A stretch of 51,744 nt of DNA from a virus. Made by a program: the position numbers and the translations under genes. Each line of letters begins with the position of its first letter. Within the stretch, counting starts at the first letter, position 1. Under the pieces are notes generated by a model. It saw nothing but the letters and a program-made list of their open reading frames with translations, was not told the origin of the DNA and did not search any database. Location: IMG/VR virus record IMGVR_UViG_3300035698_017634, positions 1 to 51,744 of that record, one strand, 5' to 3'. Shown here one piece after another: positions 2,713-26,934 of the stretch.

Positions 2713-3614
2713 TGTATCCTTTTTAGTAGTTTTGAAAACATTAAAAATTCATTTGTTATTGCGCCTCCGGCACTATACTCGTGCCCAGCCCCTGAACATA
2801 ATGTTTGCGCTATTTTTAATAAATCAAGATTACACGTACTGCTTCGTCGTATTGAAATATGGTTTGTGTTTGGATTAACAATAAAAACCACTTCTCCATT
2901 TTTTTCACGCATCAAATAGTCAGCAACACCGTTAATATCTTCCGTAGAAAAAGCACTTAAAACCTTACGCTTTTTTTGCCCAAGCTTAATGTCACCTTCA
3001 TATATTTCGAGATTTTTAATAAGATTTTCATGTCTTCGTTGAAATCTTTTTAATATCAACAATTGTTCATCATTAAATCCGTTAAATCCGGTTTTAAACC
3101 AATTAATAAAGTTATTTATTTTCTCGATTCCGTTATTTGAACTGTTCCAAAAAAGGTTATTTAACTGTTGCGTTTGAGGAATTGATAACTTATAAGAATC
3201 ATAATCATCTGCTAATGCAACCAACATCTTTTGTTCTTTAGTTAATTCTAGATTATACAATCGTCTATAAAGCTGATAACACATCTTTGATGCTGATGTA
3301 TATTCTTTAACACATAACTTAACATTTGGTTTTCTTTTTTGTGGAAGATTTAATACATGGGATTTGTGATGATCTACAACTAAAATATTATTCCCATTTA
3401 AAATATCATAATGTTTTGATATATCTATATCTAATATAAAAATATGGTCATATTGCTTAGTTTGGTTTTTAAAATGGTTTGTATAATCTTTATAAAAAAA
3501 CTCATTCCTTACTGGTTTAAAATCTATCTCTGATTTTGGAAACGCCCAGCGAGTTAACAAATAGCTAACAATGCCGTCTAAATCAAAGTGAAAAAAGCAT
3601 AATAAATCTTTCAT
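2709..3614 (-). CDS. DHH/DHHA1-type phosphoesterase
   Basis: The 301-residue protein shows the DHH phosphoesterase signature: HFDLDG at residues 9-14, an acidic strand ILDIDIS, and the diagnostic VDHHKSH near residue 80. Towards the C-terminus GAGHEYSAGGAI corresponds to the glycine-rich DHHA1 substrate-binding motif. Such enzymes (RecJ, NrnA, GdpP relatives) are Mn-dependent nucleases or phosphodiesterases acting on ssDNA, short oligonucleotides or cyclic dinucleotides. At about 300 residues it is nearer the NrnA/oligoribonuclease size than full RecJ. It follows the helicase C-half with an ATGA overlap and so belongs to the replication operon. The exact substrate is not determined. Confidence 0.82.
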   Translation of the reverse strand: MKDLLCFFHFDLDGIVSYLLTRWAFPKSEIDFKPVRNEFFYKDYTNHFKNQTKQYDHIFILDIDISKHYDILNGNNILVVDHHKSHVLNLPQKRKPNVKLCVKEYTSASKMCYQLYRRLYNLELTKEQKMLVALADDYDSYKLSIPQTQQLNNLFWNSSNNGIEKINNFINWFKTGFNGFNDEQLLILKRFQRRHENLIKNLEIYEGDIKLGQKKRKVLSAFSTEDINGVADYLMREKNGEVVFIVNPNTNHISIRRSSTCNLDLLKIAQTLCSGAGHEYSAGGAITNEFLMFSKLLKRIQ

Positions 3615-4003
3615 ATATTTAATTCTTTCATTACTGAATTCATATTATCATTATTCGATGTTATATCGGTGGTTTCTTCTATACTTAACGTTTTATAGTC
3701 TAGTTTCATACTACAACTTCCAAAAGCAGGGCCAAATCTATTTTTCATAATAGCAAAATGAATAAACCCTAACTCTTTATCTTCAGCATTTTGCCAAATA
3801 CCTATTTGAGCATCAGCCGTAAAGGAAATACCTATACTTTCACTAATTTGATCAGATTCTGGGGCCTTACCTTTCATACCTGAATTATGTGTTAAAACGT
3901 CATTAGCAATAAATAAATTATCTCCATCAACTTCAATGTCAATTGTGTCTTCTATACCACACTCTTCTATGGAAACAATTTCATCATATTTTAAATCATT
4001 CAT
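3611..4003 (-). CDS. 41: gp41/DnaB replicative helicase, C-terminal part with C-intein
   Basis: The first 40 residues are the C-terminal piece of a split intein. They contain the block F/G features of Hint domains (ETIDIE-type beta strand, NLFIAND) and end in VLTHN followed by Ser, the classic Asn cleavage residue and Ser nucleophile. Residues 41-130 are the last part of the RecA-like core of a DnaB-family helicase (SGMKGKAPESDQISES, then the terminal beta strands). Together with the product of 5139-6500 it should trans-splice into a roughly 451-residue hexameric 5'-3' helicase, close to T4 gp41 (475). The intein C-piece closely resembles the known gp41-8 C-intein as I recall it. It overlaps the endonuclease gene by eight bases. 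Confidence 0.88.
   Translation of the reverse strand: MNDLKYDEIVSIEECGIEDTIDIEVDGDNLFIANDVLTHNSGMKGKAPESDQISESIGISFTADAQIGIWQNAEDKELGFIHFAIMKNRFGPAFGSCSMKLDYKTLSIEETTDITSNNDNMNSVMKELNI
3884..4003 (-). other. C-intein coding segment of the split gp41 intein
   Basis: This is the 40-codon segment from the initiator ATG to the Asn of VLTHN. The next codon is the +1 Ser of the C-extein. It lacks any endonuclease domain, as expected for a natural split intein, and is complementary to the 92-residue N-intein at 5142-5417. The endonuclease gene lies between the two. Confidence 0.85.
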
Positions 4004-5078
4004 TTAAAAACTCCATACATTTTTTAATTATATTTTTTTTATCTTTTTTATACTCACTTTCCCAAATAATCAAAACATCAAACCCACGCTTTTTAATAAA
4101 ATCAATTCGTCTATTATCATATTTCCAAATATCTTTAGCTGTTAACTTCTTTGTAAATGGATTAGGGGTGTCGTTTTCTTTAAATTTAGTTGGATTTGCA
4201 TGAAAGACATCCCCATAAAATTCTATACATTTATGAATAGTAGGAATACAAAAGTCAATTAAATACCCACCTTCATATTTACAATTATTTGTTCCCATAA
4301 AACGAATATAACCATTATATATTAAAAACTCTTTATTTAATTTTGCAAAGAAAACTTTATTTTTGCTCATTTTTAATAATTTATATAATTTATTAAATAA
4401 TTCTTGTGAAATTTTTGAATATCCAATTTTTGAAGATTTAGTTAATCTGTTTATATTTTCTTCGTATTTCTCAATGCCTTTTTCTTTTCCGTGTTTTTCA
4501 ATAAACCAATTTAGTGTGTATCTATATAAAAACCACTGGTGTCTTTGATTATATAAGTCAACTCCTTTTTTAAAACCATATTTTTTGATAGCTCGTTCTA
4601 AAGAATGATTTCCTTTATTTTTTTCACAAAACTCATTATATTTTTGTATTCCTAATTCTTTACCATATCTTCTAATAAAATTATCTTTTGTTCCAGCTTT
4701 TTTTGAATTACACTCATTATATTTTTTAACTCCTTCTTCATTACCATATTTTTGAATAAAATTCTCTTTATTTGGTTTTACACCATTTTTCCATTTTTCA
4801 TATTTGTTTTTACCATTAATTTCACCATATAATAGAATACATTTTTCTAGTGTCATTCCTTTTGGATTTTTAATATTTCTATATAATTTTAATTTTTCTT
4901 CTAAGTTAAAAAACTCGTTTTGTACTAGTACAGCTAATACAATAATTTCACATCTTTTTAATTTTTGATGTTTCCAAATATTTTCGGCTTTATTTATAAG
5001 GTCCGGATTTAATACTAAATTATTATTAACCCTTTTCCATTCTTTTTGATTAATTAAATTTTGTTTAACATATTTCAT
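3996..5078 (-). CDS. Vsr-like (EDxHD-type) free-standing homing endonuclease
   Basis: A 360-residue protein placed between the two intein-bearing halves of the helicase gene. The C-terminal 110 residues look like the Vsr/very-short-patch-repair nuclease fold: GGYLIDFCIP, then CIEFYGDVFHANP, then a late LIIWESEY. This fits the E, D, xH, D catalytic pattern of homing endonucleases described with fractured genes. The first 230 residues carry about five repeats of roughly 30 residues centred on KYGxExGxxKYNE, probably DNA-reading modules. I prefer the ATG at 5078, preceded by TAGGAGC, over 5114. The 3' end overlaps the C-half start by eight bases. The coding sequence is visibly more A/T-rich than the neighbouring helicase. 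Confidence 0.85.
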   Translation of the reverse strand: MKYVKQNLINQKEWKRVNNNLVLNPDLINKAENIWKHQKLKRCEIIVLAVLVQNEFFNLEEKLKLYRNIKNPKGMTLEKCILLYGEINGKNKYEKWKNGVKPNKENFIQKYGNEEGVKKYNECNSKKAGTKDNFIRRYGKELGIQKYNEFCEKNKGNHSLERAIKKYGFKKGVDLYNQRHQWFLYRYTLNWFIEKHGKEKGIEKYEENINRLTKSSKIGYSKISQELFNKLYKLLKMSKNKVFFAKLNKEFLIYNGYIRFMGTNNCKYEGGYLIDFCIPTIHKCIEFYGDVFHANPTKFKENDTPNPFTKKLTAKDIWKYDNRRIDFIKKRGFDVLIIWESEYKKDKKNIIKKCMEFLNE

Positions 5079-5104
5079 ATTGCTCCTATTAAAGTACTTT
5101 GAAA

Positions 5105-5112
5105 TACTTATC
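5105..5112 (-). promoter_or_regulatory. Late-promoter-like box before the Vsr-like endonuclease
   Basis: GATAAGTA on the minus strand differs at one position from the GATAAATA box seen before late genes in this window. It lies about 27 bases before the preferred ATG at 5078 and just downstream of a small inverted repeat (AGCAA-N7-TTGCT) that follows the stop codon of the helicase N-half. It is weaker than the box before the HNH endonuclease. Confidence 0.35.
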
Positions 5113-5138
5113 ATATGAGCAACACTGTCTTGCTGTTA

Positions 5139-6500
5139 TTACTGAGAATTATTGTATATTTTTATTATACTTCCTATTTTTAGTCCAGAATTTAGTGAAA
5201 TATCCCCATTATTGGTTGGAAAAATATGATTTGCGGAGCATTTAATTGTTTTTCCGCTTTTTGTTATTATTTTATATACTTTTTGTTTGGTAATGGGATG
5301 AATATTTAATACAGTTACTACTTTATTGTTTCCTAATATTTTTTCTCCAATTTTAATATCTTTAATATTTATTTTTTCCAGTGTTTCCTTATAAACATCA
5401 CAACTCGTTGATAAACAACGACCTATCTGAGTGGCGGTCACTATAGGTATCTTAAAAAGGTATGTTAGAGCTCGAAGTTGCTCAGTTACGGCTTTATTCT
5501 TTTCATACGTGTTTTCACCTGTCTTGCCATTAGGCAATATAAGATTTAAATAGTCAACAACAATAATATCTGGTTTAATTCCTTTAATTATCAATTTTTC
5601 AATATATGTTTTTATCGTATTTACACGTATTGTAGATGGTGGAAATTCTTTAATAATCAGACTTGAAGTACTGTGTGTTCTTTGATAGCCAGTTACAAAA
5701 TCCTTTAAAGCAGTTGTTTGTGTTTTAAGTTCGCTATAAGGAATTTTTGATAATTGAGCATCAATACGAGTGGTGTATATTTCTTCAGCCATTTCTAAAG
5801 AAATAATAACAACTGTCTGATTTTTTGATAAACAATTTGTGGCTAAATTACCCAAAACAATTGATTTGCCTACATTAGTAATTCCACAAAAAACATATAA
5901 GGCTCGACCGTCTGCAAGCAACCCACCGGATAGCTTGTCATCTAACCATTTATATCCAGTTGAGATATGATTTTTTACCTTTTGAAGGTCTACAATATGT
6001 TTATCAATATCTTTAAAGTAATTATGGCCCAAATTATCAATTAATGAAATATTACACGCCTTATTAAAACTCTCAAAGGTATTAAACGTATCTATTTTTC
6101 CATTTGTATACTCATCAATAGTTTTTATAAGACAATTATATACACTTTTTTCTTTTAAAAATCTCTCTGTATTCTCATATAGCTTTGTTTTATTAATATT
6201 ACTATCTATTTGTTTAAAAGATTGACATATTCGTTTCCAAGAGTCTCTTTCTTCCTGTGAATTAAGATGAGTCTTGATTTCCGTTGAGGTTGGTGTTGTA
6301 TTATATTTTCTAAAGAAATCGACGATAATTTTAAACACCAACTTAATATCAGTATTCTTAAAAAAAGACGGATCAATTGTATCTATAATAGTGCCTAAAT
6401 ACACTTGATCCATTATTGCATTATAAATTATGATATTCTCAAAAAAATCCCAGTCAATGTTCTTTAATGTGTTGTCATTCGTTGTCAGCTCCTTCTGCAT
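5139..6500 (-). CDS. 41: gp41/DnaB replicative helicase, N-terminal part with N-intein
   Basis: Residues 1-361 are the N-terminal domain and most of the RecA-like motor of a DnaB-family helicase. Visible are STGYKWLDDKLSGGLLADG, Walker A GITNVGKS, ISLEMAEE, Walker B IIVVDYLNL and the sensor strand VTATQIGR. Residues 362-453 are an N-intein starting with Cys (CLSTSCDVYKE) and containing the block B motif SANHIFP, then a stop. Sequence and length resemble the split inteins gp41-1 and gp41-8. The protein alone lacks the final motor segment and must be joined to the product at 3611-4003. The start codon lies within the 3' end of uvsX (26-base overlap). Confidence 0.9.
   Translation of the reverse strand: MQKELTTNDNTLKNIDWDFFENIIIYNAIMDQVYLGTIIDTIDPSFFKNTDIKLVFKIIVDFFRKYNTTPTSTEIKTHLNSQEERDSWKRICQSFKQIDSNINKTKLYENTERFLKEKSVYNCLIKTIDEYTNGKIDTFNTFESFNKACNISLIDNLGHNYFKDIDKHIVDLQKVKNHISTGYKWLDDKLSGGLLADGRALYVFCGITNVGKSIVLGNLATNCLSKNQTVVIISLEMAEEIYTTRIDAQLSKIPYSELKTQTTALKDFVTGYQRTHSTSSLIIKEFPPSTIRVNTIKTYIEKLIIKGIKPDIIVVDYLNLILPNGKTGENTYEKNKAVTEQLRALTYLFKIPIVTATQIGRCLSTSCDVYKETLEKINIKDIKIGEKILGNNKVVTVLNIHPITKQKVYKIITKSGKTIKCSANHIFPTNNGDISLNSGLKIGSIIKIYNNSQ
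5142..5417 (-). other. N-intein coding segment of the split gp41 intein
   Basis: These 92 codons start at the Cys after TQIGR and end at the stop of the N-half gene. Features: Cys1, a block A-like start, repeated short beta strands (KVYKIITKSGKTIKCSANH), and the block B His in SANH. No endonuclease insertion is present. The insertion point falls in the conserved strand-loop after the sensor motif of the helicase, a functionally critical site. Confidence 0.87.
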
Positions 6501-9134: not shown

Positions 9135-10238
9135 TTAATTCAGCATTTTTAATAGATCTACAGCGAAATTATTATTAGGATTTTCTAACTTCCAGCCAAT
9201 TGCTTCATAAAAACGTGATATGGACTGCACCACTAACTTATCAAACATTTTATTAATATCAACCTGTAAATTAAATTCTTGAGGAAAGACATCAGAAAAG
9301 GCAATACTCTCTATATTATATTTATTAGGTAAAAGGTATAGATATTTAATTTTTTGACCTGATTGTATTTTTTCATACTTATGAGTTAAAGACAATTTAT
9401 CTAATAATAAGTTATATCTTATAGACCCCTTTACGTGAATTGGCGTGTGGTTTCCCATCTTAAAACCTTCACTTAACTTTTTATATTTTTCTAGATTTTT
9501 CATGCCCTTTGGAACCGCTATTTGTTCCGTTGGAATCGCTTTAAATTTGTTAAAGGTTTCTTTAAAAATTTCATTAGTTTTTTGATTATCGTGAGTTCTA
9601 ATAATTGTCTCTATAACTTCTTTAATAATGGGCTTAATAGCCTTTGGCACGTCACTTTTAACAAGATCAACTCCCTTATATGATATCTTATCACATGGAA
9701 TGCCCTTATTATCTATAATATGAAGCGCATAATGCTTCTTTACTAAAAACACACCAGTTGTACATATGGATTCTCGTTTAAACTGAAAACGACAATCTTG
9801 AGAGTTTAGCTCAGTATTTCCCCATTTAACAATTTCTTCATTTAAGTGTTTATCAATTTCATTAATAATTTGAATTACAGCTGGGTTTATTAAATTATCT
9901 ACCATCATAGGAATCTTTAGCTTTTCAAGAATAGATTTCAACGTAATAAACAATGAATCCGTATCGGCAGTGATAATATTGTCTTTTTCAATTTGATATT
10001 TTGTTTTAATATATTCATTAACAATTACTTCGCTTTTTTTAATACACTCTTGCCCAGTTAATGTAATACTGGCAGCACATTCAATATCATAAAGCGGACT
10101 ATATTGATTTGCGAAGGTTCCGTAGACCTTATTCATAAATAGTTTAATTGCTGTCTGTTGATTGTCTAGATGAACAATTTTATTTTCTAGTACTTCAATT
10201 TTATTTTTTAGTTTATTTATTTTTTCTTCGTTTTCCAT
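9135..10238 (-). CDS. 43: B-family DNA polymerase gp43, C-terminal half
   Basis: This 367-residue product holds polymerase motif B in the form KLFMNKVYGTFANQ near residue 35, motif C TADTDSLF near residue 93, and the thumb domain. It lacks any exonuclease domain and motif A, which are on the gene at 11491-13023. The first 30 residues (INKLKNKIEVLENKI) are a heptad-like helix, complementary in style to the helical end of the N-half. The two may re-associate as a coiled coil at the tip of the fingers. ATG 10238 is preferred over the upstream TTG. It overlaps the HNH gene by 26 bases. No intein sequence is visible. Confidence 0.87.
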   Translation of the reverse strand: MENEEKINKLKNKIEVLENKIVHLDNQQTAIKLFMNKVYGTFANQYSPLYDIECAASITLTGQECIKKSEVIVNEYIKTKYQIEKDNIITADTDSLFITLKSILEKLKIPMMVDNLINPAVIQIINEIDKHLNEEIVKWGNTELNSQDCRFQFKRESICTTGVFLVKKHYALHIIDNKGIPCDKISYKGVDLVKSDVPKAIKPIIKEVIETIIRTHDNQKTNEIFKETFNKFKAIPTEQIAVPKGMKNLEKYKKLSEGFKMGNHTPIHVKGSIRYNLLLDKLSLTHKYEKIQSGQKIKYLYLLPNKYNIESIAFSDVFPQEFNLQVDINKMFDKLVVQSISRFYEAIGWKLENPNNNFAVDLLKMLN

Positions 10239-11445
10239 AATATTCAAATCCTAATAATTTAATATTATTAACAAATTCATTTAAAAATTCTTTAGAAAAT
10301 TTTAAATATTCTCTTTGGCTACAATTTAATGATCCTTTTAACATTTGAAGATTTCCATAATGTCCTATTATTTTTGGATCAATTTTATTAACAAATCCAT
10401 ATGCAATTGAAACTATATGATCTAAATGGAATCCGTGGGAATTATTATCTACTCGCTCTCTTTTAACACTATTAAAGTTTATTAAATTTTCATATAATTT
10501 ATATGATAAGTTTGTATACGCCTTTACTTTTTGATAATATTGTGGCCAATTTTTAATGTTAATTTTATTTTTATTTAACTGAATTATACTTTTATAATTA
10601 CCTGTACATTTACTTGAACAAAACGTATGATATCCATTGATGTGCGTATCATATTTACATTTTTTAATTTTACAATACAAACAATATGGAGCCTGATCTA
10701 AATTATTTAAATACAAAAATATAGCTTCAGAAACATTTTTTATTAATGGATATTGTTTTTGTATTTTTTTATAAATTTTAGGAAAAAAATTTTTTAAATA
10801 TTGTTTGCAACGATTTCCTTGTTTTAAAGATATTATTTTTTTAATTGTTTGATATTCGTTTAAAGATTTATTTTTTAATATTTTAAACAATCTATATCCA
10901 AAATAGCCATATTTGTTTGTATGAAAAATTAAAGGAATTTGATTAATTTTAGGTTTGTCATAAATATTATATGTATATCTATAAACCATTTCTCTTTTAT
11001 TAGTCGAATCAGAAAAAGTTTTAATAATATATTGATATTCTTTGGGATAATATTTTTGAATTATATTTAAAATTCGAATGCAAGATTTATTATTATTTCC
11101 TGTGGTGTTATTTTTTTGAAATATATAAATTGATTTAATTAACTGTTTAAGATTAAATTTGGGATGTTTGTTGATATAATTTTTAAGAAAAATAGTAAAT
11201 TTATTATTTTGCATTCTTCCTTTTTTATATATTTTTCCGTTCAGAATCAATGGTTCATATGATATTTCTTTAAAATTATATGATTTATTATTGATAATTA
11301 AAGTTTTATTTTTCAATTCTTTCCAAATTTCTGGCCATTTTCTTTTAAGATATTCAAAATTATTTCTAGTATAATTTGCATTAATAGCTTTTCTAGGGGT
11401 TGATATATTATTTTTACACCAAACGATTAATTCTTCATTATTCAC
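10213..11445 (-). CDS. HNH free-standing homing endonuclease between polymerase halves
   Basis: A 410-residue basic protein. Around residue 255 YCLYCKIKKCKYD and YHTFCSSKCTGN form a zinc-finger-like Cys cluster. Near residue 350 GFHLDHIVSIAYGF followed by GHYGNLQMLKGSLN gives the HNH nuclease motif (His, Asp-His, Asn, Asn). The N-terminal 240 residues are rich in Lys, Ile and Asn and presumably bind the target site. The start is a GTG at 11445 with GGAG eight bases before it. A GATAAATA late-promoter box lies 30 bases upstream. The sequence is strongly A/T-biased compared with the polymerase. It probably cleaves uninterrupted gene 43 in competing phages and thus spreads with the break. Confidence 0.85.
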   Translation of the reverse strand: MNNEELIVWCKNNISTPRKAINANYTRNNFEYLKRKWPEIWKELKNKTLIINNKSYNFKEISYEPLILNGKIYKKGRMQNNKFTIFLKNYINKHPKFNLKQLIKSIYIFQKNNTTGNNNKSCIRILNIIQKYYPKEYQYIIKTFSDSTNKREMVYRYTYNIYDKPKINQIPLIFHTNKYGYFGYRLFKILKNKSLNEYQTIKKIISLKQGNRCKQYLKNFFPKIYKKIQKQYPLIKNVSEAIFLYLNNLDQAPYCLYCKIKKCKYDTHINGYHTFCSSKCTGNYKSIIQLNKNKINIKNWPQYYQKVKAYTNLSYKLYENLINFNSVKRERVDNNSHGFHLDHIVSIAYGFVNKIDPKIIGHYGNLQMLKGSLNCSQREYLKFSKEFLNEFVNNIKLLGFEYYGKRRKNK

Positions 11446-11474
11446 ATTAAATCTCCATAAACCTTGTTTTTAAA

Positions 11475-11482
11475 TATTTATC
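11475..11482 (-). promoter_or_regulatory. Late-promoter box GATAAATA before the HNH endonuclease
   Basis: The minus-strand sequence GATAAATATTTAAAAA is identical over 16 bases to the boxes before the genes at 42126 and 45738. It falls between the polymerase N-half stop and the endonuclease GTG, leaving a leader of about 20 bases with GGAG. A perfect 6-bp hairpin (AAATCT-N5-AGATTT, 11486-11502) overlaps the polymerase stop codon just upstream. Confidence 0.6.
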
Positions 11483-11490
11483 TTAAAATC

Positions 11491-13023
11491 TCAACAAGAT
11501 TTACGGAATGATGCTTTTAAACTGTTTAATTCCTTTATAATTTTATTCTTTTTTTCTTCTAATTCGTTTATTTCTTTCTGAATATTTTTTCTTTTATCAT
11601 ATAATGGAGAAATCAGTTCAGAACAAATACCTTTAAATGACTGAATAAACATAATATTTGCTTTTGAAACTGCTATTTTTTTGTCAACTATAAATTTAGT
11701 AAACTCTTCGTTAGTAAACTCTTTTTGCTGTTTATTAATGAACTCCACTTTTACTTTACCGTTTTCATTAGACAGTATTTTACCAGCTTTCGTTTCTGGT
11801 GAAATATTTAAAGTAATCATTGTATTTGGGTATAGACTGTTTAAGTCAAATGTGACTATATTCTCATACAACCCTCTTTTTGGTTGTTTAACAAAACCGC
11901 CTGTAAATGATTGCACGTCTTTATTAACAAACGTTGGTATAATTCTATTTTTTAACAATGCTTTACTTGCTAAAGCCCCACCTACCATCGCAATTGTCCC
12001 CATAGCATCTTCAAACGGGGTTAAACCAAGATATGCTAACTCTCTCATTGTAGACATATAATGTAGCTTTTTTTCTAGATCAATTATAAGCTGAACATCT
12101 TGTATATTATAATCAACAAACGTAGTCCAATCCTTTTCCGCAAGTTCGGTTAAACTTATAGCATTATAAGTCAATTTACCGGCCCCTAATTCTTCTTCCC
12201 CAATATAGTTTAAACTATATGAGGATTTTAAATTCTGAGAGAATGTTTTATATATAAACATATAATCAAAGAGCGATACCCCCTTAATTAACCATTTTGA
12301 GTTTTCATCTCCAAAGCGGTTAATTACTTTTTCTCTAAAATTCAACTCTCCAACCGGAGATAGTTTTTTAGGGAAATTTTCATCCTTAAAAACTATTTTC
12401 ATTCGATTTATGATATATGGTATATCAAATACTTCTGAATTCCATCCAACAACTATATCGGGAAAGTGTTTTCTCCAGTATTTCACAAAATATAAGAGCA
12501 ATTCTTCCTCACTCTTACATTTAATATATATCACATTATCTTGTTTGGGTTGGTAGTCCTTTTCTAATCCAAACACAATAAACTTATTTTCTAAGGAATC
12601 AAAAATGTTAATTACATTAATTGTATCCTTAGCTTTAGTTATATCAGGAAAGGTGTGAGAAAAAGTTTCAATATCCAGGTAAAAAATTCTTAAAGGATGC
12701 TTATTGAAGTCGTCATTTTCGTGGGTATTGTAGAAATTATCTATTAAAAACTGTTGTTCGGGTTTTATGTTATAAAAAATTCGCGTAATTCCACACGTTT
12801 TAATGTATTCACTTCTTTTCCATGCATTGTCGAATTCCATTTTTTTCAACTTTGTGTTAAAAATAGAAATTCCATCTTTACCATCAGGGTGTTCAATATA
12901 AAAATAAGGCCGGAAAGGTTTAGTTACAATAATCCGTTCACCCTTTTCATTCCAGGAATATAAAGTGATTTTACTTGAAAACTTATTGTAATGAATGTTG
13001 CGATAATTAAAAAAGTTTTCCAT
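11491..13023 (-). CDS. 43: B-family DNA polymerase gp43, N-terminal half
   Basis: The 510-residue product carries the 3'-5' exonuclease (Exo I FYLDIETFSH; Exo II VGWNSEVFDIPYI; Exo III YNIQDVQLIID) and the first part of the polymerase domain with motif A FDLNSLYPNTMITLN. It ends in a charged helix (IQKEINELEEKKNKIIKELNSL) and the tail SFRKSC, upstream of motif B. The break therefore falls in the fingers. The rest is on 9135-10238. Split gene 43 is known in some T4-like Aeromonas phages. A TTAACT-N16-TATAAT promoter ends six bases before the ATG, so the mRNA is probably leaderless. Confidence 0.9.
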   Translation of the reverse strand: MENFFNYRNIHYNKFSSKITLYSWNEKGERIIVTKPFRPYFYIEHPDGKDGISIFNTKLKKMEFDNAWKRSEYIKTCGITRIFYNIKPEQQFLIDNFYNTHENDDFNKHPLRIFYLDIETFSHTFPDITKAKDTINVINIFDSLENKFIVFGLEKDYQPKQDNVIYIKCKSEEELLLYFVKYWRKHFPDIVVGWNSEVFDIPYIINRMKIVFKDENFPKKLSPVGELNFREKVINRFGDENSKWLIKGVSLFDYMFIYKTFSQNLKSSYSLNYIGEEELGAGKLTYNAISLTELAEKDWTTFVDYNIQDVQLIIDLEKKLHYMSTMRELAYLGLTPFEDAMGTIAMVGGALASKALLKNRIIPTFVNKDVQSFTGGFVKQPKRGLYENIVTFDLNSLYPNTMITLNISPETKAGKILSNENGKVKVEFINKQQKEFTNEEFTKFIVDKKIAVSKANIMFIQSFKGICSELISPLYDKRKNIQKEINELEEKKNKIIKELNSLKASFRKSC

Positions 13024-17211: not shown

Positions 17212-18252
17212 TTACATCTTAGATTCAACTCTTGCCCCAGAACTAATCTCAATTAGTTTAGCATTTGCTTTAAATTCTGTAAGGTTGTGAGCTCCTACAT
17301 AGGAGCATGAACTTTTTAGTCCATCTTGTATTTCCTTTAAAATATACTTGACATGACCGCGAAACGGAACTATTTTTGTAGCTCCTTCAACAAACTCACC
17401 TTCTTGGCCGTTTTGCACTTTATTTTCTTTGGACGCCGATCCACCATATGTCTTATAAAACTGTCCTTGTTCGTTTTTAAAAACATCTCCAGGTGTTTCT
17501 GATGTTCCTGATATATACGAACCAACCATTACTGCGTCTGCTAACACCATTGCCCTGCAAACATCTCCAGCGGATTTAATTCCACCATCTGAAATAATTT
17601 TAATATCTGGGTTTGAAGAGCGTATATTAAGAAGGGCCTGTAACTGTGGAACTCCTACGGCTGTTTGTGTTCTCGTTAAACAGACTGGTGAGGGGCCTAT
17701 TCCTACTTTAATAATATCTGCTCCCCAGTCTTTTAATTCTCTTGCTCCCCAATTGGTAGCCACATTTCCAGCAATTATTACAATATCTTTTAAGTTTTGG
17801 GTTCTAATATATTCGATCATATTTTTCATACGAAGGGAATGACCATGAGCAGTATCTATACAAAACAGTCGAGCTCCTGCTTCATACAGCTTACCAAATC
17901 GGTCCTTTTCCTCGTCCTTTACTCCAACAGACACCCCAACCTTGTAGTTAACCCCCGTATTTCCTGTAAATTGATTTTCAGCCATTGTTGGTGCTGTATA
18001 TTCTAAAACCTTTTTTAAATCTTTAACAGCTTTATCTATTGTACAAAACCTATGCAGTATTCCTAATCCACCACTATCACACATAGTTTTTGCCATCTTT
18101 GCCCCAGTAATAGTTTTCATATTACTAGAAATTAAAGGAAGTGTTAGATTTATTAATAAATGAAGTGCCGTAGTTGTATCTACAGTTTTTCTACTCAAGA
18201 CGTCAGAATAACCAGGTTCAATTAAAACATCTGAAAAAGTTATTGCATTCAT
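17212..18252 (-). CDS. GMP reductase / IMP dehydrogenase family enzyme
   Basis: A 346-residue TIM-barrel enzyme without CBS domains. It shows SDVLIEPGYSDVLSR at the N-terminus, GNVATNWGARELKDWGADIIKVGIGP, the catalytic loop GIGPSPVCLTRTQTAVG with its Cys, and SDGGIKSAGDV for phosphate binding. Near the C-terminus GGLKSS-type sequence (DGLKSSCSYVGAHNLTEF) resembles GMP reductase. The length equals E. coli GuaC (347) and is shorter than typical IMPDH. It could make IMP from GMP, or XMP from IMP. Its location next to GDP-sugar enzymes suggests control of guanine nucleotide supply. TATAAT lies seven bases before the ATG without a clear -35. Confidence 0.8.
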   Translation of the reverse strand: MNAITFSDVLIEPGYSDVLSRKTVDTTTALHLLINLTLPLISSNMKTITGAKMAKTMCDSGGLGILHRFCTIDKAVKDLKKVLEYTAPTMAENQFTGNTGVNYKVGVSVGVKDEEKDRFGKLYEAGARLFCIDTAHGHSLRMKNMIEYIRTQNLKDIVIIAGNVATNWGARELKDWGADIIKVGIGPSPVCLTRTQTAVGVPQLQALLNIRSSNPDIKIISDGGIKSAGDVCRAMVLADAVMVGSYISGTSETPGDVFKNEQGQFYKTYGGSASKENKVQNGQEGEFVEGATKIVPFRGHVKYILKEIQDGLKSSCSYVGAHNLTEFKANAKLIEISSGARVESKM

Positions 18253-18275
18253 GTTTATTATTATAATAAAAAATC

Positions 18276-19271
18276 TTAAAAGTTTATTTGTTTTTTTAAA
18301 CTATTTTTGACTTGTTCTTCGATCCATGGATACGTGTGTATAATCCCCTGTTCAAGGTTATATTGCGATTTCCACCCTGTTGAATAAATCCTTTCATTAC
18401 TGAAATTTCGTGATTGAACCCCAACAGGCCCTGGAACCGTTTTTATGCTTATTTTCTTTCCAGCAACTTTAGCAACAGTATTAACTAGATCTAATACACT
18501 TACATATTGGTGTGAACCTATATTAGTTGGTTGATTGACGTTTGATTGTGTTAATGTATAAATGCCACGAACCATATCAGCTATATACGTATAGCATCTA
18601 ACGGCTGATCCGTCACCCCAAATTTCAATAATGTCCCCATCATTAGCCATAGCTATTTTTCGACACATAGCAGCTGGGGCCTTTTCTCGTCCACCCTGCC
18701 AAGTTCCTTCCGGTCCATAACAATTTTCAAATCGGGCAATCCGGACTTCCATACCACTTTTCTTACCATACGCAATTAACATCTTTTCTGCATACAACTT
18801 TTCAAACCCATAATTATTGTCTGGTTGAGCTGGATACGCATCATCTTCAGTTAGCTGTGGATCACCAGGCTTCATGTTTTTATACACACAAACAGACGAT
18901 GAATAAAAATACTTTGGAACTTGTAACCCAGCGGCAGCATGAATCATATTTACATTAATTAAAACATTATTATGCATAATATCACATTCAGCAGAATGTA
19001 TAAACCCCATTCCACCCATATCGGCAGCTAGCTGATATACTTCATCAAATTCAGATTTATTAATATAGTTCTTTATAAGGGCAGATTGACAGTTATTTGG
19101 TACTCGTAAATCCAAAATTAAATTTTCATCACAAAAATCTGAAACCTTTCCATATTCATACGGTTTTATATCAACAACCCTAACCCAACACCCAAGATTC
19201 TTTAAATATCTAGCTAGTTGATGCCCTATAAAACCATTTCCACCAGTAACCAAACAACGTTTATTATTCAT
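18276..19271 (-). CDS. GDP-mannose 3,5-epimerase-like sugar epimerase (copy 1)
   Basis: An extended short-chain dehydrogenase of about 331 residues: NAD-binding CLVTGGNGFIGHQLA, then QLAADMGGMGFI, SSVCVY with the catalytic Cys, YGFEK (Tyr and Lys), and GGREKAPAAMCRK. All are diagnostic of GDP-mannose 3,5-epimerase, which makes GDP-L-galactose and GDP-L-gulose. The start at 19271 (GGGG before ATG) overlaps copy 2 by eight bases. It is clearly paralogous to the gene at 19264-20259 but more diverged from the plant-type enzyme in its second half. Confidence 0.82.
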   Translation of the reverse strand: MNNKRCLVTGGNGFIGHQLARYLKNLGCWVRVVDIKPYEYGKVSDFCDENLILDLRVPNNCQSALIKNYINKSEFDEVYQLAADMGGMGFIHSAECDIMHNNVLINVNMIHAAAGLQVPKYFYSSSVCVYKNMKPGDPQLTEDDAYPAQPDNNYGFEKLYAEKMLIAYGKKSGMEVRIARFENCYGPEGTWQGGREKAPAAMCRKIAMANDGDIIEIWGDGSAVRCYTYIADMVRGIYTLTQSNVNQPTNIGSHQYVSVLDLVNTVAKVAGKKISIKTVPGPVGVQSRNFSNERIYSTGWKSQYNLEQGIIHTYPWIEEQVKNSLKKQINF

Positions 19272-20259
19272 ATTTTCCCCTTGTTTTATTAACTTGTTCT
19301 TCAATCCATTTATATGTTTTATCTATTCCAACTATTAAAGGCTGAGAAGGTTTCCACCCTAATTTTTCATATATTAATTTATTATCAGAATTTCTTCCCC
19401 GAACCCCTAATGGCCCATCAATATGATTAATGTTGATTTTCTTTCCTGCAATTTGAGCAACCATGTTTACCAAATTGTTAATTGAAATTTTTTCTTCTGA
19501 ACCAATATTTACTGGCCCTGAAAAATCAGAATTCATTAATCTTTGAATACCTTCCAAACATTCATCTATATAAAGAAATGATCGTGTTTGTTCGCCGTCA
19601 CCCCAAATTTCAATAGTGTCTCCGGAATTAACCATAGCAATTTTTCTACATATTGCGGCTGGGGATTTTTCTTTTCCATTGTTCCCTGCGCCTTCTGGGC
19701 CAAATATATTATGAAAACGAGCAATATGCACATTAAGACTGTGGTTACGTTTATATGCTAGAGCAATTCGTTCTGTCATTAATTTCTCAAAACCATAGTC
19801 TGAATCTGGGTTTGCTGGGTAAGCTGTATGTTCTTCACAATTTGGATTATCTTTATCCTTTTGTGTATTTTGATTATAACAGCAGGCACTACTACTAAAA
19901 AACAATTTTTTTACTTTAAGTTTAGCGCAAGCATCAATAACATTTATATTAATTAATAAGTTATCGTGCAATATTTGGGCATCATTATTTCCGGTGAAGA
20001 TTACACCCGCCCCGCCCATCCAAGCTGCTAAGTTGTATACCTCATCAACAGGCTCACCGTTTATTAAAATAGAATTTACACAATTTTCAAACTGCCTTAA
20101 ATCTAAAAGAGTATAATGATCAGTAAAATCAATTGGTCCGTGTTTATATTCATTAATGTCAACCGTTCTAACCCAATGCCCTTCTGCTTTTAATTTTTTA
20201 GCTAAGTGATGCCCAATAAATCCTGTCCCGCCTAATACTACAATATTCTTTTTAATCAT
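19264..20259 (-). CDS. GDP-mannose 3,5-epimerase-like sugar epimerase (copy 2)
   Basis: A 331-residue homologue of the adjacent gene. Motifs: VLGGTGFIGHHLAKKL, NLAAWMGGAGVIF, SSACCYNQ, YGFEK, RFHNIFGPEGAG, GKEKSPAAICRK and a C-terminal block PLGVRGRNSDN. The last is very close to the plant GDP-D-mannose 3',5'-epimerase. Substrate GDP-mannose is expected to come from the host. The tandem pair may form a heterodimer or have split specificities. An ATG at 20259 is preceded by GAAAGGAA. Confidence 0.84.
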   Translation of the reverse strand: MIKKNIVVLGGTGFIGHHLAKKLKAEGHWVRTVDINEYKHGPIDFTDHYTLLDLRQFENCVNSILINGEPVDEVYNLAAWMGGAGVIFTGNNDAQILHDNLLININVIDACAKLKVKKLFFSSSACCYNQNTQKDKDNPNCEEHTAYPANPDSDYGFEKLMTERIALAYKRNHSLNVHIARFHNIFGPEGAGNNGKEKSPAAICRKIAMVNSGDTIEIWGDGEQTRSFLYIDECLEGIQRLMNSDFSGPVNIGSEEKISINNLVNMVAQIAGKKININHIDGPLGVRGRNSDNKLIYEKLGWKPSQPLIVGIDKTYKWIEEQVNKTRGKYE

Positions 20260-20282
20260 TATGTATTCCTTTCATTTAACCT

Positions 20283-20915
20283 TTATATTTTACGTAAAAT
20301 TGTTAATCCATGCGTAACAGGTATTGTACAATATTCCCATTTTGTTTTATCTAAATCAAATAATGCTCGAGTTGGCCCACCGTTTGCAAACTCACCATAA
20401 TTTTCTTTTGTTACTTCATAAGCTGGAACGGTGTGTCCCATTGTGTCATGTATTAATATAATACTAGTATTTGTTGTTAATTTATCAAGCAATTTTAATT
20501 CTTCGGTAGTGTGTTCATATGAATGCCAATCATCAACAAAAACTAAACCGTATGTTAATGACTTGTTTATACTTTCTTTAAGAAATGCAATAGAATCCAT
20601 ACACACGGGGTTCCAATACGGTCTTAATTGTGGGGGACATTTTCTATTAACCAAATCAAAACATGGAGCACTAATATCAACCGATGTCACCGTTCCTTGT
20701 GTATATTTAGCCCCTAACAACAATGGTATAGTTGTTCCTCCGGACCTTACCCCAAGTTCTAGAATGTTTTTACTGCACATAGTTGTAATAAAAGAAAACA
20801 ACAATGAGGTAAATCTTGAACTTTCTCTTTGCCGATGTTGGTCTATATGACCAGCCCCTTCATTGATCATAAGTTCAAATTCGCTTAAATCTTTAATGTC
20901 TAATTTTATATTCAT
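20283..20915 (-). CDS. Class I SAM-dependent methyltransferase
   Basis: About 210 residues with a Rossmann methyltransferase core: NILELGVRSGGTTIPLLLGA (motif I), VTSVDIS (motif II acid), GLVFVDDWHSYEHTTEELKLL and ILIHDTMG, resembling cephalosporin hydroxylase/CmcI-like and TylF-like O-methyltransferases. ATG 20915 overlaps the upstream gene stop as ATGA and is preceded by AGGAG. It lies in the sugar block, so a sugar or glycan hydroxyl is the probable target. Confidence 0.72.
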   Translation of the reverse strand: MNIKLDIKDLSEFELMINEGAGHIDQHRQRESSRFTSLLFSFITTMCSKNILELGVRSGGTTIPLLLGAKYTQGTVTSVDISAPCFDLVNRKCPPQLRPYWNPVCMDSIAFLKESINKSLTYGLVFVDDWHSYEHTTEELKLLDKLTTNTSIILIHDTMGHTVPAYEVTKENYGEFANGGPTRALFDLDKTKWEYCTIPVTHGLTILRKI

Positions 20916-21616
20916 AATTCTCCTATTGAGTTCACTATCCAAAGGGTTTGTACGTGTGGAAACGCATTACCTATTTGGCCTAATTTAGTCATTTTTACAT
21001 TATACTCTTCACAGATTTCTTTATGAGCTCGTGCTTCTCCATATTTACAAGTTTCAAATTCAGGTGTTCCACCCCAATCATCATAACCAATTAATGTTCC
21101 TTTTGTTATTAGATGGTTGTCTATCATAAATTTAAAAGCGTATTTCGTTGGAGAATATATATCTAAATCAAAATCTACATAAGCTGCTTTTTTTAAATCA
21201 GCTTTATTTTTTTCTAAGGTTTTCTCAACTAATCCGTTATATATCTTTACAGGTGTATTGATATTGGTTTGTTTAAAGACTGCATTTGTTTTTGCCTCAA
21301 TTTCTTCTATACATTCTTCTTGTGTTGCCTTTTTCATTCTAATCATTGTATTAAAAACGTCAGGATCAATATCTGGATCCCAATCTTTTTGAAAGATGGG
21401 TTCAGCTGTTTCTTTTGGCATTCCTGTAAATACGTCAAAACCATAAAAGATTCCCATTTCTAAGCCACAGGATGAAAATATTTTTGCCAAGTCAACCATT
21501 GAGTCACCAGCAAAAATACCAAATTCGTATATTGCCCTATTTGGGTACTGCAACACTGTTGTATTTGATATAATTCGACTATAATAATTTCGTAAAAGCA
21601 TTTCTCGCCAAGACAT
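20912..21616 (-). CDS. TylF/macrocin-type O-methyltransferase
   Basis: A 234-residue protein with IYEFGIFAGDSMVDLAKIF (SAM-binding), GFDVFTGMPKE, then AAYVDFDLDIYSPTKYAF and IGYDDWGG, the acidic metal-binding residues of TylF-like enzymes that methylate sugar hydroxyls. It is coupled to the following methyltransferase by an ATGA overlap. The target is likely the deoxysugar or hexose produced by the neighbouring enzymes. Confidence 0.72.
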   Translation of the reverse strand: MSWREMLLRNYYSRIISNTTVLQYPNRAIYEFGIFAGDSMVDLAKIFSSCGLEMGIFYGFDVFTGMPKETAEPIFQKDWDPDIDPDVFNTMIRMKKATQEECIEEIEAKTNAVFKQTNINTPVKIYNGLVEKTLEKNKADLKKAAYVDFDLDIYSPTKYAFKFMIDNHLITKGTLIGYDDWGGTPEFETCKYGEARAHKEICEEYNVKMTKLGQIGNAFPHVQTLWIVNSIGEL

Positions 21617-21620
21617 TGTA

Positions 21621-22454
21621 TTACTCCTTTTTATTCATACTATTAATTATTTTTGTTATGCCGTCTTCTATTTCCGTTTTTGGTTTCCATATATCTAATA
21701 TACATGGATCGGGTTCATTTTTCTTATTAAGTTGAACTTCATCTACCTTTGCTCCTGGTACAACAACAGTACCAGGATATTTACTTGCTATTATATTAGC
21801 AATATCTATAATCTTATGCCACTTAAAGTCTGTTATATGCAGGTTCATATCTCTAGGCAGTGTATGATACATGGTTGAAAGTTTAACTAAACACTCACAA
21901 CAATCCTCGGCATAAAGCATCTGACGCTCTTCTCGCCCATCAGTTAACATTTCTATTTTATGGTTATTTTTTGCCTGTAAAATGAAATCGGTAATTACAT
22001 GAGCTTTTTCTAAATTATGCTCAACCCCATATACGTTCCAAAATTTAACAACTATCCCATTAAGAATTTTTGTATATACCTCGCCTACTGTCTTAAGCAC
22101 CCCATAAGAAGAGTAAGACATATTTGCCATCTGACTAGATGCAAAAATAAAGGGTTTGTTGTGCATTTTAAGTTGCTTAAACGTATTTTTTAGTATGGAC
22201 ATATTATTGTAGACAAAGTCGTATGTTTGTTGATATTTTTTAAGGTATCGAGACCCTCCCACATCAAAAGCAAGAAAATAAACAAAATCCACTTCGTTCA
22301 TATATTCACTTATTCGGCAATCGTCATACCTTAAGTCTTCGTCGTTCGGATCTGCAACTATATCTATTGTTAGTACAGTATTGTTTTGCGCTCGTAAATA
22401 ATTAACAAGTGCTTTTCCTATTTGTCCTTCCGAACCTAAAACCAAATATTTCAT
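21621..22454 (-). CDS. NAD-dependent sugar epimerase/dehydratase (SDR)
   Basis: A 277-residue extended SDR: YLVLGSEGQIGKALVNYL (NAD-binding GxxGxxG), FVYFLAFDVGG, FASSQMANMSYSSYGVLKT in place of the YxxxK region, and KFWNVYGVE. The catalytic motif is SYGVLK, with Tyr and Lys in register. The DVGGS sequence parallels the AADMGG of the GDP-mannose epimerases. Probably acts on a nucleotide sugar. It is followed directly by the TylF-like gene. Confidence 0.75.
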   Translation of the reverse strand: MKYLVLGSEGQIGKALVNYLRAQNNTVLTIDIVADPNDEDLRYDDCRISEYMNEVDFVYFLAFDVGGSRYLKKYQQTYDFVYNNMSILKNTFKQLKMHNKPFIFASSQMANMSYSSYGVLKTVGEVYTKILNGIVVKFWNVYGVEHNLEKAHVITDFILQAKNNHKIEMLTDGREERQMLYAEDCCECLVKLSTMYHTLPRDMNLHITDFKWHKIIDIANIIASKYPGTVVVPGAKVDEVQLNKKNEPDPCILDIWKPKTEIEDGITKIINSMNKKE

Positions 22455-23290
22455 ATTTTATCTCCAAAAATTTTCTTTAGTTGATCGGCAAGTATATCAT
22501 CTGTTGAATTAAATTTTTTAGCTCGTTCAAGATTGTCTTTCATTGCGTCTTTTCGTTTATAATATTCATCCCTATTTAATTTAATCTTCGCAAAGTCGTC
22601 AATTGTATCAAACAGTATCATACCATCAAGATTAAAAAATTGTCCTATATTTGGCGTTCCCCAATAAATCGGCACCGTTCCTAAAGCAAAACAATCAGTT
22701 AATACCTCTGTCCAATAATTGTCAATCTTATAATTCATTATTGCCACTGAAAACATGTAGTCTTTTAATGGATCTAACTTGTTATTAAACCGTTTATATC
22801 CAGATCCCCAAAAATCGACACCCTGTAATCTTTGAACTAAATTATGTCGTAAGACGTGACCTGGAGCAAACCTTTTATCAGACGCTATCATTGATACTTG
22901 TTTTATTTTAGGATGTATCTTCCAATCTTCATCCTTTACTCGGCTCGATGATATATACATAACTTTATATTTATCTGGATTCTTCTTTAATAGATCTGGA
23001 TGAAATGTTAATATATAATCAAAACGATTTTCATACTGTTGAATCTGTTGGTAAACCCAAGGCTTTATTCCTGGTGATTCTTGACACCACCCTACTTTAT
23101 ATTTGCTCTTTACTTTTAAAACGTTTTCTGAAAACATGTGCTCATCAGTAAACACTGTAACTCCATCAAATTCTGACAAGTTACGAATGTATTTAATTTT
23201 AGTTGGTTTTCTTCCCATGGAAGAAGAATCAAACCCATCCTGACTTTTAGAATGAGCGAAATTGCTATCGAATAGGTTAATAGTAATCAT
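22451..23290 (-). CDS. GT10-family (alpha-1,3-fucosyltransferase-like) glycosyltransferase
   Basis: 279 residues. The C-terminal half has the GT10 pattern: FSVAIMNYKIDNYWTEVLTDCFALGTVPIYWG, equivalent to the conserved ENS...YVTEK...GTVPI motif, with WGSGYKRF before it. GT10 enzymes transfer L-fucose from GDP-fucose; GDP-L-galactose is a close analogue. The Lys of YVTEK is replaced by Val-Leu here. It overlaps its neighbours by four bases on both sides. Confidence 0.75.
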   Translation of the reverse strand: MITINLFDSNFAHSKSQDGFDSSSMGRKPTKIKYIRNLSEFDGVTVFTDEHMFSENVLKVKSKYKVGWCQESPGIKPWVYQQIQQYENRFDYILTFHPDLLKKNPDKYKVMYISSSRVKDEDWKIHPKIKQVSMIASDKRFAPGHVLRHNLVQRLQGVDFWGSGYKRFNNKLDPLKDYMFSVAIMNYKIDNYWTEVLTDCFALGTVPIYWGTPNIGQFFNLDGMILFDTIDDFAKIKLNRDEYYKRKDAMKDNLERAKKFNSTDDILADQLKKIFGDKI

Positions 23291-23946
23291 GTTTTTAATA
23301 CCGCTAAATAATTGTTAAAGGCGTAATCTTCTTGTATTTCTTTTGGGGCGTATATTTGTTTATTTGTATAGTCATATTTAAAAATTTTATAATTTTGTTT
23401 AAGTAAATACTCCACTAAAGTTAATAACAATACATTAGCATCTTTAAACGTCCCACCATACTCAAATTGTATATTTTTAATTGTGCCTAGTTTTAAAGAA
23501 TTTTCTGCACCTAGCAAAACATTGTATTCACTTCCTTCTGTGTCTATTTTTACTAAATCAACGTTTTGTATTTGGTTATCAATAATATACTTATCAATTG
23601 TTGTTGTTTGCACTTGTATCTTATTAAAGTTTTCTCCATATGCTGGTCTATAAAAAAGAGAAGACCCGCCTGTGTTTTCTTCTGGTGGATCATACATTTC
23701 TGTTATTTCTACTTTATTACTTACAGCCAAGTTGTTTATTTTAACATCCTTATTTGATTGAAATGTAGAACACAACTTTTCGTAATGTCGTTTAATGGGC
23801 TCAAAGATATGTACATCCATATTAATTTTTGTATCAATTAATGATTTAGTGTAAAGTCCTAAATTGGCACCCACATCAAAAACGATTTGTTTTTGGTCTT
23901 TATTTTTTAAAGAATATAATATATAAGCATCTTCTTCTTCGTTCAT
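23287..23946 (-). CDS. FkbM-family methyltransferase
   Basis: About 219 residues. KQIVFDVGANLGLYTKSL is the FkbM SAM-binding motif. HIFEPIKRHYEKL, INNLAVSN, TTTIDKYI and VDLVKIDTEGSEYNVLLGA complete the family's typical set. FkbM enzymes methylate sugars or polyketides. The ATG at 23946 (GAGGT before it) is preferred over an in-frame start 11 codons upstream, because it follows the upstream stop by two bases. Confidence 0.8.
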   Translation of the reverse strand: MNEEEDAYILYSLKNKDQKQIVFDVGANLGLYTKSLIDTKINMDVHIFEPIKRHYEKLCSTFQSNKDVKINNLAVSNKVEITEMYDPPEENTGGSSLFYRPAYGENFNKIQVQTTTIDKYIIDNQIQNVDLVKIDTEGSEYNVLLGAENSLKLGTIKNIQFEYGGTFKDANVLLLTLVEYLLKQNYKIFKYDYTNKQIYAPKEIQEDYAFNNYLAVLKT

Positions 23947-23948
23947 AT

Positions 23949-24590
23949 TTACCTCACAAATAAGGCGTCGCCCCAAGCTTTATGGTATTTTACAGCATCT
24001 ACACAAGAAAAGCCATATGGTTTTAGAAAATCTTCAATGTCGTTTAATAACGGTGCTCCTTTATATAGGGATTCCCAAGAAGCTTCAGTCATAATTACTC
24101 TAAGGTTTGGATCCATTAATGTTTTTTGAGCACCTTGTAATGCGATTAATTCTCCACCCTGTAAGTCCATATTTAAAAGCTCAACACTTTTTATTGTATC
24201 ATTTGTTAAAATTTTATCAATTGTAATTGTTTTAACGGTTACAGTATTATAGTGTTTAATCCCAGGGTAATAATCTAAATGTTTTGTTGGCAAAAGCACG
24301 GACGAGCCTCCTCTATTTGACCCTGATTCATCACTCATTAAATGAAAAGCAATTAATTCATCGTCTTTATTAAAAACCGCCCTATTAATAGTATAATTAG
24401 TTAATCCATTTGTTTTAACTTTGGTTAACATTTCATTATATAACTCTACATTAGCTTCAACCCATATTACATTTTCTGCATTAATTGATTTATAAAATGT
24501 TGACTCTTCTCCCAAATATGCTCCAAGGTGTAAAACTGATTTTACATTGTTTGCATACTTAGCTATCATATTTTCTGACGCATTATCCAT
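23949..24590 (-). CDS. FkbM-family methyltransferase (second copy)
   Basis: 213 residues with SVLHLGAYLGEESTFYKSI, VIWVEANVELYNEML, INRAVFNKDDEL, VKTITIDKIL and LLNMDLQGGELIALQGA, the FkbM set with Asp-Leu-Gln-Gly in place of DTEG. It is a diverged neighbour of the gene at 23287. Two FkbM enzymes in a row suggest two methylated positions on one glycan. Confidence 0.78.
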   Translation of the reverse strand: MDNASENMIAKYANNVKSVLHLGAYLGEESTFYKSINAENVIWVEANVELYNEMLTKVKTNGLTNYTINRAVFNKDDELIAFHLMSDESGSNRGGSSVLLPTKHLDYYPGIKHYNTVTVKTITIDKILTNDTIKSVELLNMDLQGGELIALQGAQKTLMDPNLRVIMTEASWESLYKGAPLLNDIEDFLKPYGFSCVDAVKYHKAWGDALFVR

Positions 24591-24591
24591 G

Positions 24592-26740: not shown

Positions 26741-26934
26741 TGACAAAATTCTCTCCAATGAGTTACCTTAGTTCTTACTTCTTGCTCAGTTCTTACATTG
26801 ATCCATTTTTTATAACAACTACAATATCCTTTATATGTCCAGCCATCAGCATCTTTAAAGACAACGTCCCACTGCGAATCCGGTAATCGTTTTTTACAAG
26901 AAATCCAATCTGATAATTCTTTATGTTCTTGCAT
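26737..26934 (-). CDS. DUF551-like small protein
   Basis: A 65-residue protein reading SDWISCKKRLPDSQWDVVFKD, then GYCSCYKKWINV and VTHWREF. This is the DUF551 layout (W-I-S-V-x-R-L-P ... W ... V-T-H-W-M-P), small phage proteins of unknown role. It overlaps the downstream and upstream glycosyltransferase genes on both sides, so it is carried inside the glycan operon. Confidence 0.65.
   Translation of the reverse strand: MQEHKELSDWISCKKRLPDSQWDVVFKDADGWTYKGYCSCYKKWINVRTEQEVRTKVTHWREFCQ

What the first reader, a model, noticed from the sequence alone, without database searches (positions are those of the whole stretch)
3611..6500. Helicase gene fractured by a split intein with an endonuclease between the halves
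The N-half ends in a 92-residue N-intein (Cys1, block B SANH) and the C-half begins with a 40-residue C-intein ending in HN followed by Ser. Each helicase half is incomplete, but together they make a normal 451-residue DnaB-type protein. A Vsr-like homing endonuclease gene lies in between. This is the fractured-gene arrangement described from marine metagenomes, with inteins related to gp41-1 and gp41-8. Seeing it in a long phage context allows the host phage and its other genes to be described. The pair could be a new fast trans-splicing split intein.
Basis: partly seen in the sequence, partly recalled or inferred. Interest (0 to 1): 0.82.

Follow-up and report, generated by a model that had tools for sequence, protein, structure and literature searches.

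The report
Phage helicase gene fractured by split intein

Summary
The N-half (5139-6500, minus) is 361 helicase residues plus a 92-residue N-intein. The C-half (3611-4003) is a 40-residue C-intein ending HN, then Ser and 90 helicase residues; together the exteins make 451. Between them lies a Vsr/EDxHD-type homing endonuclease gene (3996-5078, start revised from 5114). A related viral contig has the same helicase uninterrupted in the same gene order (76% identical), giving a precise empty site. The intein matches gp41-1 (PDB 6QAZ). So this is a new member of the 'fractured gene' class named by Dassa et al. 2009. Two details are added. The endonuclease start lies in a predicted RNA hairpin hiding its ribosome site, as in T4 I-TevI; the late promoter expected there is not confirmed. 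The same phage has a polymerase split by another endonuclease-like gene and a LAGLIDADG intein in NrdD. Trans-splicing and its speed were not tested.

The parts
5418..6500 (-). N-extein, first 361 residues of a gp41/DnaB-type replicative helicase
   Evidence: Pfam DnaB_C E 4e-20, PHROG 19 E 6e-57
5142..5417 (-). N-intein, 92 residues, CLSTSC...SANH...; stop codon at 5139-5141
   Evidence: gp41-1 intein 6QAZ E 4e-14
5077..5125 (-). Predicted RNA hairpin pairing the AGGAG (5083-5087) and start codon of the endonuclease gene with upstream sequence
   Evidence: MFE -19.7 kcal/mol, z -3.5, 1 of 200 shuffles as stable; recurrent in relatives
5105..5112 (-). GATAAGTA, late-promoter-like (6 of 8 to TATAAATA), 34 nt before the endonuclease start; not above chance on its own
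   Evidence: 21 of 51 relatives have a perfect TATAAATA in the same spacer
3996..5078 (-). Homing endonuclease gene, 360 aa: predicted array of helix pairs (KYGxxxGxxKY repeats) and C-terminal Vsr/EDxHD-like nuclease domain
   Evidence: PHROG 22677 E 3.5e-37; homologues in other fractured genes; model and fold search
3884..4003 (-). C-intein, 40 residues, ending HN; own ATG with GGAG inside the end of the endonuclease gene
   Evidence: DnaB intein 1mi8 E 3.5e-7, gp41-1 6QAZ E 1.3e-6
3611..3883 (-). C-extein, last 90 residues of the helicase, beginning with Ser+1 (plus stop)
   Evidence: PHROG 19 positions 508-584; aligned with intact L002

Best explanation
This is a gp41-type replicative helicase gene of a T4-like phage, fractured at a Q-x-x-R|S site by a split intein into which a free-standing Vsr/EDxHD homing endonuclease gene has settled. 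The two helicase halves are translated separately; the N- and C-intein fragments associate, splice in trans by the Cys1 / His-Asn / Ser+1 route and release an intact 451-residue helicase. The endonuclease cuts phages whose helicase gene lacks the insert, and repair copies the whole N-intein / endonuclease / C-intein unit into them. The endonuclease is probably kept silent on transcripts reading through the helicase gene, because its ribosome site is folded into a hairpin, and may be expressed from a late promoter inside that hairpin. Shown here: gene layout, intein and nuclease homology, empty site, recurrence, hairpin prediction. Inferred: trans-splicing, DNA cleavage, homing, late expression.
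For: Exact sizes and catalytic residues; profile and PDB matches. L002 has the same helicase uninterrupted (76% identity over the full-length alignment, 78% in the best tblastn segment), flanked by the same recombinase and DHH genes, with VTATQINR|SGM at the break: a precise scarless empty site. 129 IMG/VR helicase loci (88 after removing N-inteins over 90% alike) at three sites, 57 of the 88 with an ORF of 150+ aa between the halves. Homologues of this endonuclease sit in fractured PolB of Aeromonas Aes123, Campylobacter CP21, Vibrio VPALA and SRB7757 and in a ribonucleotide reductase of LR756500. Fold search on a pLDDT 84 model finds Vsr and I-Bth0305I. Near-identical inteins are contiguous in L010/L111/L050 but fractured in L019. 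Inteins 95% alike in helicases only 53% alike at site b show mobility of the class. Hairpin z -3.5. The endonuclease gene is 22.7% G+C against 28.6-32.7% for its neighbours.
Against: No direct evidence of splicing or cleavage. The nuclease domain is below Pfam cut-offs in the window protein, and the fold hits have E 0.1-0.6, with only the probability score high. The late-promoter-like motif is 6 of 8, no better than shuffles give (mean 6.0), and exact TATAAATA is not enriched in the window. The empty-site relative is not close enough to date the insertion.
Confidence: 0.92

Rival explanations
1. The halves do not splice; they assemble non-covalently into a working helicase, as the split gp43 polymerase of Aeromonas phage 25 and split NrdA of Aeh1 do, and the intein is a dead remnant.
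For: This phage has such an intein-free split in its own gp43 polymerase; Aeromonas examples are documented (PMC2988022).
Against: Cys1, block B His, penultimate His, terminal Asn and Ser+1 are all present, both intein halves have full length, and similar intein halves recur in diverged relatives. A retained unspliced insert at a conserved helicase motif would likely disturb the fold (inference).
Confidence: 0.05
2. The endonuclease is a degenerate passenger and the element no longer moves; only the split intein is still functional.
For: Fractured loci without any long ORF between the halves exist at all three sites, so endonucleases are often lost or absent; the window endonuclease has weak sequence similarity to known families.
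Against: The reading frame is open over 360 codons at 22.7% G+C, with a ribosome site, and the positions invariant among relatives (Asp275, Glu286, His293, Asp321) are intact.
Confidence: 0.2
3. Assembly artefact: a chimeric contig joined two helicase fragments and an unrelated nuclease gene.
For: The source is an IMG/VR virus record, probably metagenomic.
Against: The same order is found in dozens of other contigs and in the phage records Shigella phage ESh36 (gp41, other site) and Aeromonas Aes123 (PolB); the flanking gene order equals that of L002.
Confidence: 0.01

Closest known systems
Fractured genes with split inteins (Dassa et al. 2009, NAR 37:2560; paper not held, known from its title, from citations and from memory of the abstract)
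   Same: Conserved phage replication enzyme broken by a split intein with a free-standing, often Vsr-like, endonuclease gene between; gp41 helicase is one of the types.
   Different: Nothing categorical; a new sequence, 41% identical to gp41-1 and at a different site of the helicase.
gp41-1 split intein (PDB 6QAZ)
   Same: Same host protein family, same split point (about 90 + 40 residues), same catalytic residues; E 4e-14 / 1e-6.
   Different: gp41-1-like inteins sit at TTRSGY|S (site b here), where the ORF between usually belongs to another cluster, HNH-like by inspection; the window sits at Q-x-x-R|S with a Vsr-type.
Aeromonas phage Aes123 PolB1 split intein with 'putative VSR endonuclease'
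   Same: Homologous endonuclease between two halves of a T4-like replication gene.
   Different: Host gene is DNA polymerase; the Aes123 intein is cysteine-less (PMC11923092).
I-Bth0305I (EDxHD homing endonuclease, PDB 3R3P) and Vsr endonucleases
   Same: Predicted nuclease-domain fold.
   Different: An N-terminal array of helix pairs not matched by any Pfam model; sequence similarity near noise.
T4 I-TevI control region
   Same: Ribosome site of the endonuclease hidden in a hairpin with a late promoter inside it (PMC2988022); the same logic is suggested in many loci here.
   Different: The promoter-like motif in the window is only 6/8 to TATAAATA; the element is an intein, not a group I intron.

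Membership tests
Split-intein fractured gene | Conserved enzyme in two ORFs, complementary and complete when joined | tested here: met
   PHROG 19 continues from 507 to 508 across the halves; 451 aa aligns with intact L002
Split-intein fractured gene | N- and C-intein fragments with splicing residues | tested here: met
   Cys1, SANH, THN|S; 6QAZ matches
Split-intein fractured gene | Free-standing endonuclease ORF between halves | tested here: met
   3996-5078; PHROG 22677; homologues in other fractured genes
Split-intein fractured gene | Trans-splicing activity | not testable with these tools
   needs co-expression
gp41-type intein | Homology to gp41-1 in both fragments | tested here: met
gp41-8 intein | Homology and same insertion site | not tested
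   sequence not available in the tools; similarity recalled only
EDxHD/Vsr-like homing endonuclease | Vsr/EDxHD nuclease fold | tested here: met
   Foldseek 1cw0 probability 0.99, 1vsr 0.98, 3r3p 0.91 with TM(target) 0.63; E-values 0.1-0.6
EDxHD/Vsr-like homing endonuclease | Curated profile score | tested here: not met
   DUF559 17.0 bits against cut-off 20.6 for the window protein; 10 of 21 family members match DUF559 at E<0.01, best 8e-10
EDxHD/Vsr-like homing endonuclease | Cuts the intein-free allele | not testable with these tools
   needs purified protein
I-TevI-like expression control | Ribosome site sequestered in a hairpin | tested here: met
   predicted; z -3.5, 1/200 shuffles
I-TevI-like expression control | Late promoter within the hairpin | tested here: inconclusive
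   GATAAGTA, 6/8, not above chance in the window; perfect TATAAATA in 21 of 51 relatives, mean best match 6.8 against 6.1 in shuffles

The most novel reading that the evidence does not exclude
The endonuclease cassette also retimes the helicase: a late promoter inside the break would transcribe the C-half (and the genes after it) again late in infection, so that the ratio of the two halves, and thus the amount of spliced helicase, changes with the infection stage; the split would then be a regulatory switch and not only a parasite's shelter.
Probability: 0.1. Interest if true: 0.55.

Novelty: new member of a known kind. Interest (0 to 1): 0.3.

Why it matters
Split inteins of this class are among the fastest known and are widely used protein-joining tools; one with a different sequence and insertion site is a useful candidate. 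The survey done on the way shows that fractured gp41 is common in environmental phages, occurs at three sites, is associated with different endonuclease clusters, and includes near-identical inteins in contiguous and fractured form, which makes the question of how split inteins arise directly testable.

Tried and rejected
The first block-B pattern had a spacing error and found nothing; it was repeated correctly. Single-protein searches of IMG/VR with the endonuclease and the C-half found no relatives, a limit of that method, since pattern scans found many. Dassa 2009 is not held, so its details are cited through other papers or from memory. The Cys1 frequency at site a is not used as evidence, because the site assignment in my script required Cys. 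The idea of a late promoter in the window was tested against shuffles and not confirmed. A fused intein was not folded, since joined sequences are not accepted for structure prediction. The between-ORF clusters were labelled HNH-like or GIY-YIG-like by reading the sequences, not by a profile search.

Full report
What was checked. The N-half codes for 361 helicase residues followed by 92 intein residues, the C-half for 40 intein residues followed by 90 helicase residues, and the exteins sum to 451. PHROG 19 (DnaB-like replicative helicase) is matched at positions 152-507 by the N-half and 508-584 by the C-half, so the break is inside one protein with nothing missing. Against solved structures the N-intein finds the gp41-1 intein 6QAZ at E 4e-14; the C-intein finds the DnaB intein 1mi8 at 3.5e-7 and 6QAZ at 1.3e-6. 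The endonuclease start should be moved to the ATG at 5078, which has AGGAG at a normal distance; the C-half ATG has GGAG inside the end of the endonuclease gene, which it overlaps.

Empty site. IMG/VR contig 3300035698_010590 (L002) carries the same recombinase - helicase - DHH gene order with an uninterrupted helicase (457 aa; 78% identity in the tblastn segment covering the N-extein, 76% over the full alignment). Aligned at the break the window reads VTATQIGR|SGM and L002 VTATQINR|SGM: the insert is precise. DNA identity on both sides shows no clear peak at the junction (0.63-0.90 per 100 columns), so no conversion tract is visible at this distance.

How common. Parsing the loci gave 129 helicase inteins, 88 after removing N-inteins over 90% alike: site a (Q-x-x-R|S, as in the window) 29 with a long ORF between the halves, 9 split without one, 3 contiguous; site b (TTRSGY/F|S, gp41-1 type) 13, 5, 0; site c ([T/I]SE|S) 15, 13, 1. 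Domain edges at site c are imprecise in some rows, so those counts are approximate. The ORFs between fall into clusters: the window's Vsr-like family (47 loci before removing duplicates, sites a and c), a cluster that reads as HNH (33 loci, mostly site b), a further group of 8 loci at site a, and three site-b loci with a GIY-YIG-like ORF plus a DNA-adenine-methylase-like ORF (cluster names by inspection). The intein tree groups mostly by site (5 changes against 35 in shuffles; few columns, many open forks). The nearest inteins to the window are about 52-56% identical; gp41-1 is 41%.

The endonuclease. Relatives occur in fractured PolB genes of Aeromonas Aes123 (annotated as VSR endonuclease between split polymerase pieces), Campylobacter CP21, Vibrio VPALA and a Nitratidesulfovibrio phage, and in a fractured ribonucleotide reductase of the 462-kb phage LR756500. 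Among 21 aligned relatives Asp275, Glu286, His293 and Asp321 (numbering from the 5078 start) are among the invariant positions. The AlphaFold2 model (pLDDT 84, pTM 0.46) has an array of helix pairs carrying KYGxxxGxxKY-type repeats and a C-terminal mixed domain; Foldseek ranks Vsr (1vsr, 1cw0; probability 0.98-0.99) and the I-Bth0305I catalytic domain (3r3p; 0.91, TM 0.63 on the target) among the first hits, with modest E-values. Profile search agrees weakly (3r3p E 0.02, Vsr 0.7).

Expression control. The 60-nt spacer before the endonuclease folds into a predicted hairpin that pairs AGGAG and the AUG (z -3.5; 1 of 200 shuffles as stable). Over 51 non-redundant loci with an ORF in the break, 22 have hairpins with z below -2, and 21 have a perfect TATAAATA in the spacer, commonly 26-45 nt before the start. 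T4 I-TevI works this way: early and middle transcripts hide the ribosome site, and a late promoter placed so that late transcripts cannot form the structure frees it (PMC2988022). The window phage codes for a late sigma factor homologue (29376-29960). Its own motif is GATAAGTA, 6 of 8, which is not above chance; the hairpin is therefore supported and the promoter is not.

Origin of the split. At site a, L010, L111 and L050 carry a contiguous intein; the DNA of L010 is 90-92% identical to the fractured one in L019, where a stop, a strong hairpin, the endonuclease gene and a new start lie at one point in the intein linker. The direction (insertion or loss) is not proved. At site b inteins 95% alike sit in helicases 53% alike (L057 and L097), which fits recent transfer of the unit. 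These support the homing model for the class; for the window itself they are inference.

Verdict. The finding is real and correctly read. It is a new member of a known kind: new intein and endonuclease sequences in a phage fragment that also holds homologues of UvsX, UvsY, gp32, gp43, SbcC/SbcD, a late sigma factor, gp15 and NrdD/NrdG. It is not a new arrangement.

Noticed in passing
window 9135-13023 (-): gp43 DNA polymerase is also split: N-part 11491-13023 (PHROG 262 positions 16-501), C-part 9135-10247 (486-845), with a 410-aa ORF (10213-11445) between that has an HNH-like HxxDHI...N motif by eye; no intein residues, so probably a non-splicing two-subunit polymerase.
   Followed up: partly
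window 38871-42074 (+): NrdD anaerobic ribonucleotide reductase (1067 aa) contains an in-frame cis intein ending MTQHN|C with a LAGLIDADG_3 domain (Pfam); three homing-type elements thus sit in one 52-kb fragment.
   Followed up: partly
L036, L097: Helicase genes broken into three pieces by two different split inteins (sites b and c); the middle piece carries a C-intein at its start and an N-intein at its end.
   Followed up: partly
L043, L049, L094: Between the helicase halves of L049 lie a GIY-YIG-like ORF and a DNA-adenine-methylase-like ORF, i.e. apparent cargo in the break; L043 and L094 have the same methylase-like cluster.
   Followed up: partly
L010, L050, L111 against L019: Nearly identical intein in contiguous and in fractured form (L010 against L019: 90-92% DNA identity), a natural before/after pair for the origin of split inteins.
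   Followed up: partly
L004 (Shigella phage ESh36 record, 23048-26028): T4-like phage record (marked UNVERIFIED) with gp41 fractured at another site (DIAE|S); the ORF between is annotated only as hypothetical protein and is not in the window's endonuclease cluster.
   Followed up: partly
window 48401-49615 (-): gp15-like tail sheath stabiliser on the minus strand inside a plus-strand block; only residues 9-216 of 404 match the family.
   Followed up: no
window 17212-27724 (-): Block of nucleotide-sugar epimerases, a dehydrogenase, methyltransferases and glycosyltransferases between replication genes.
   Followed up: no
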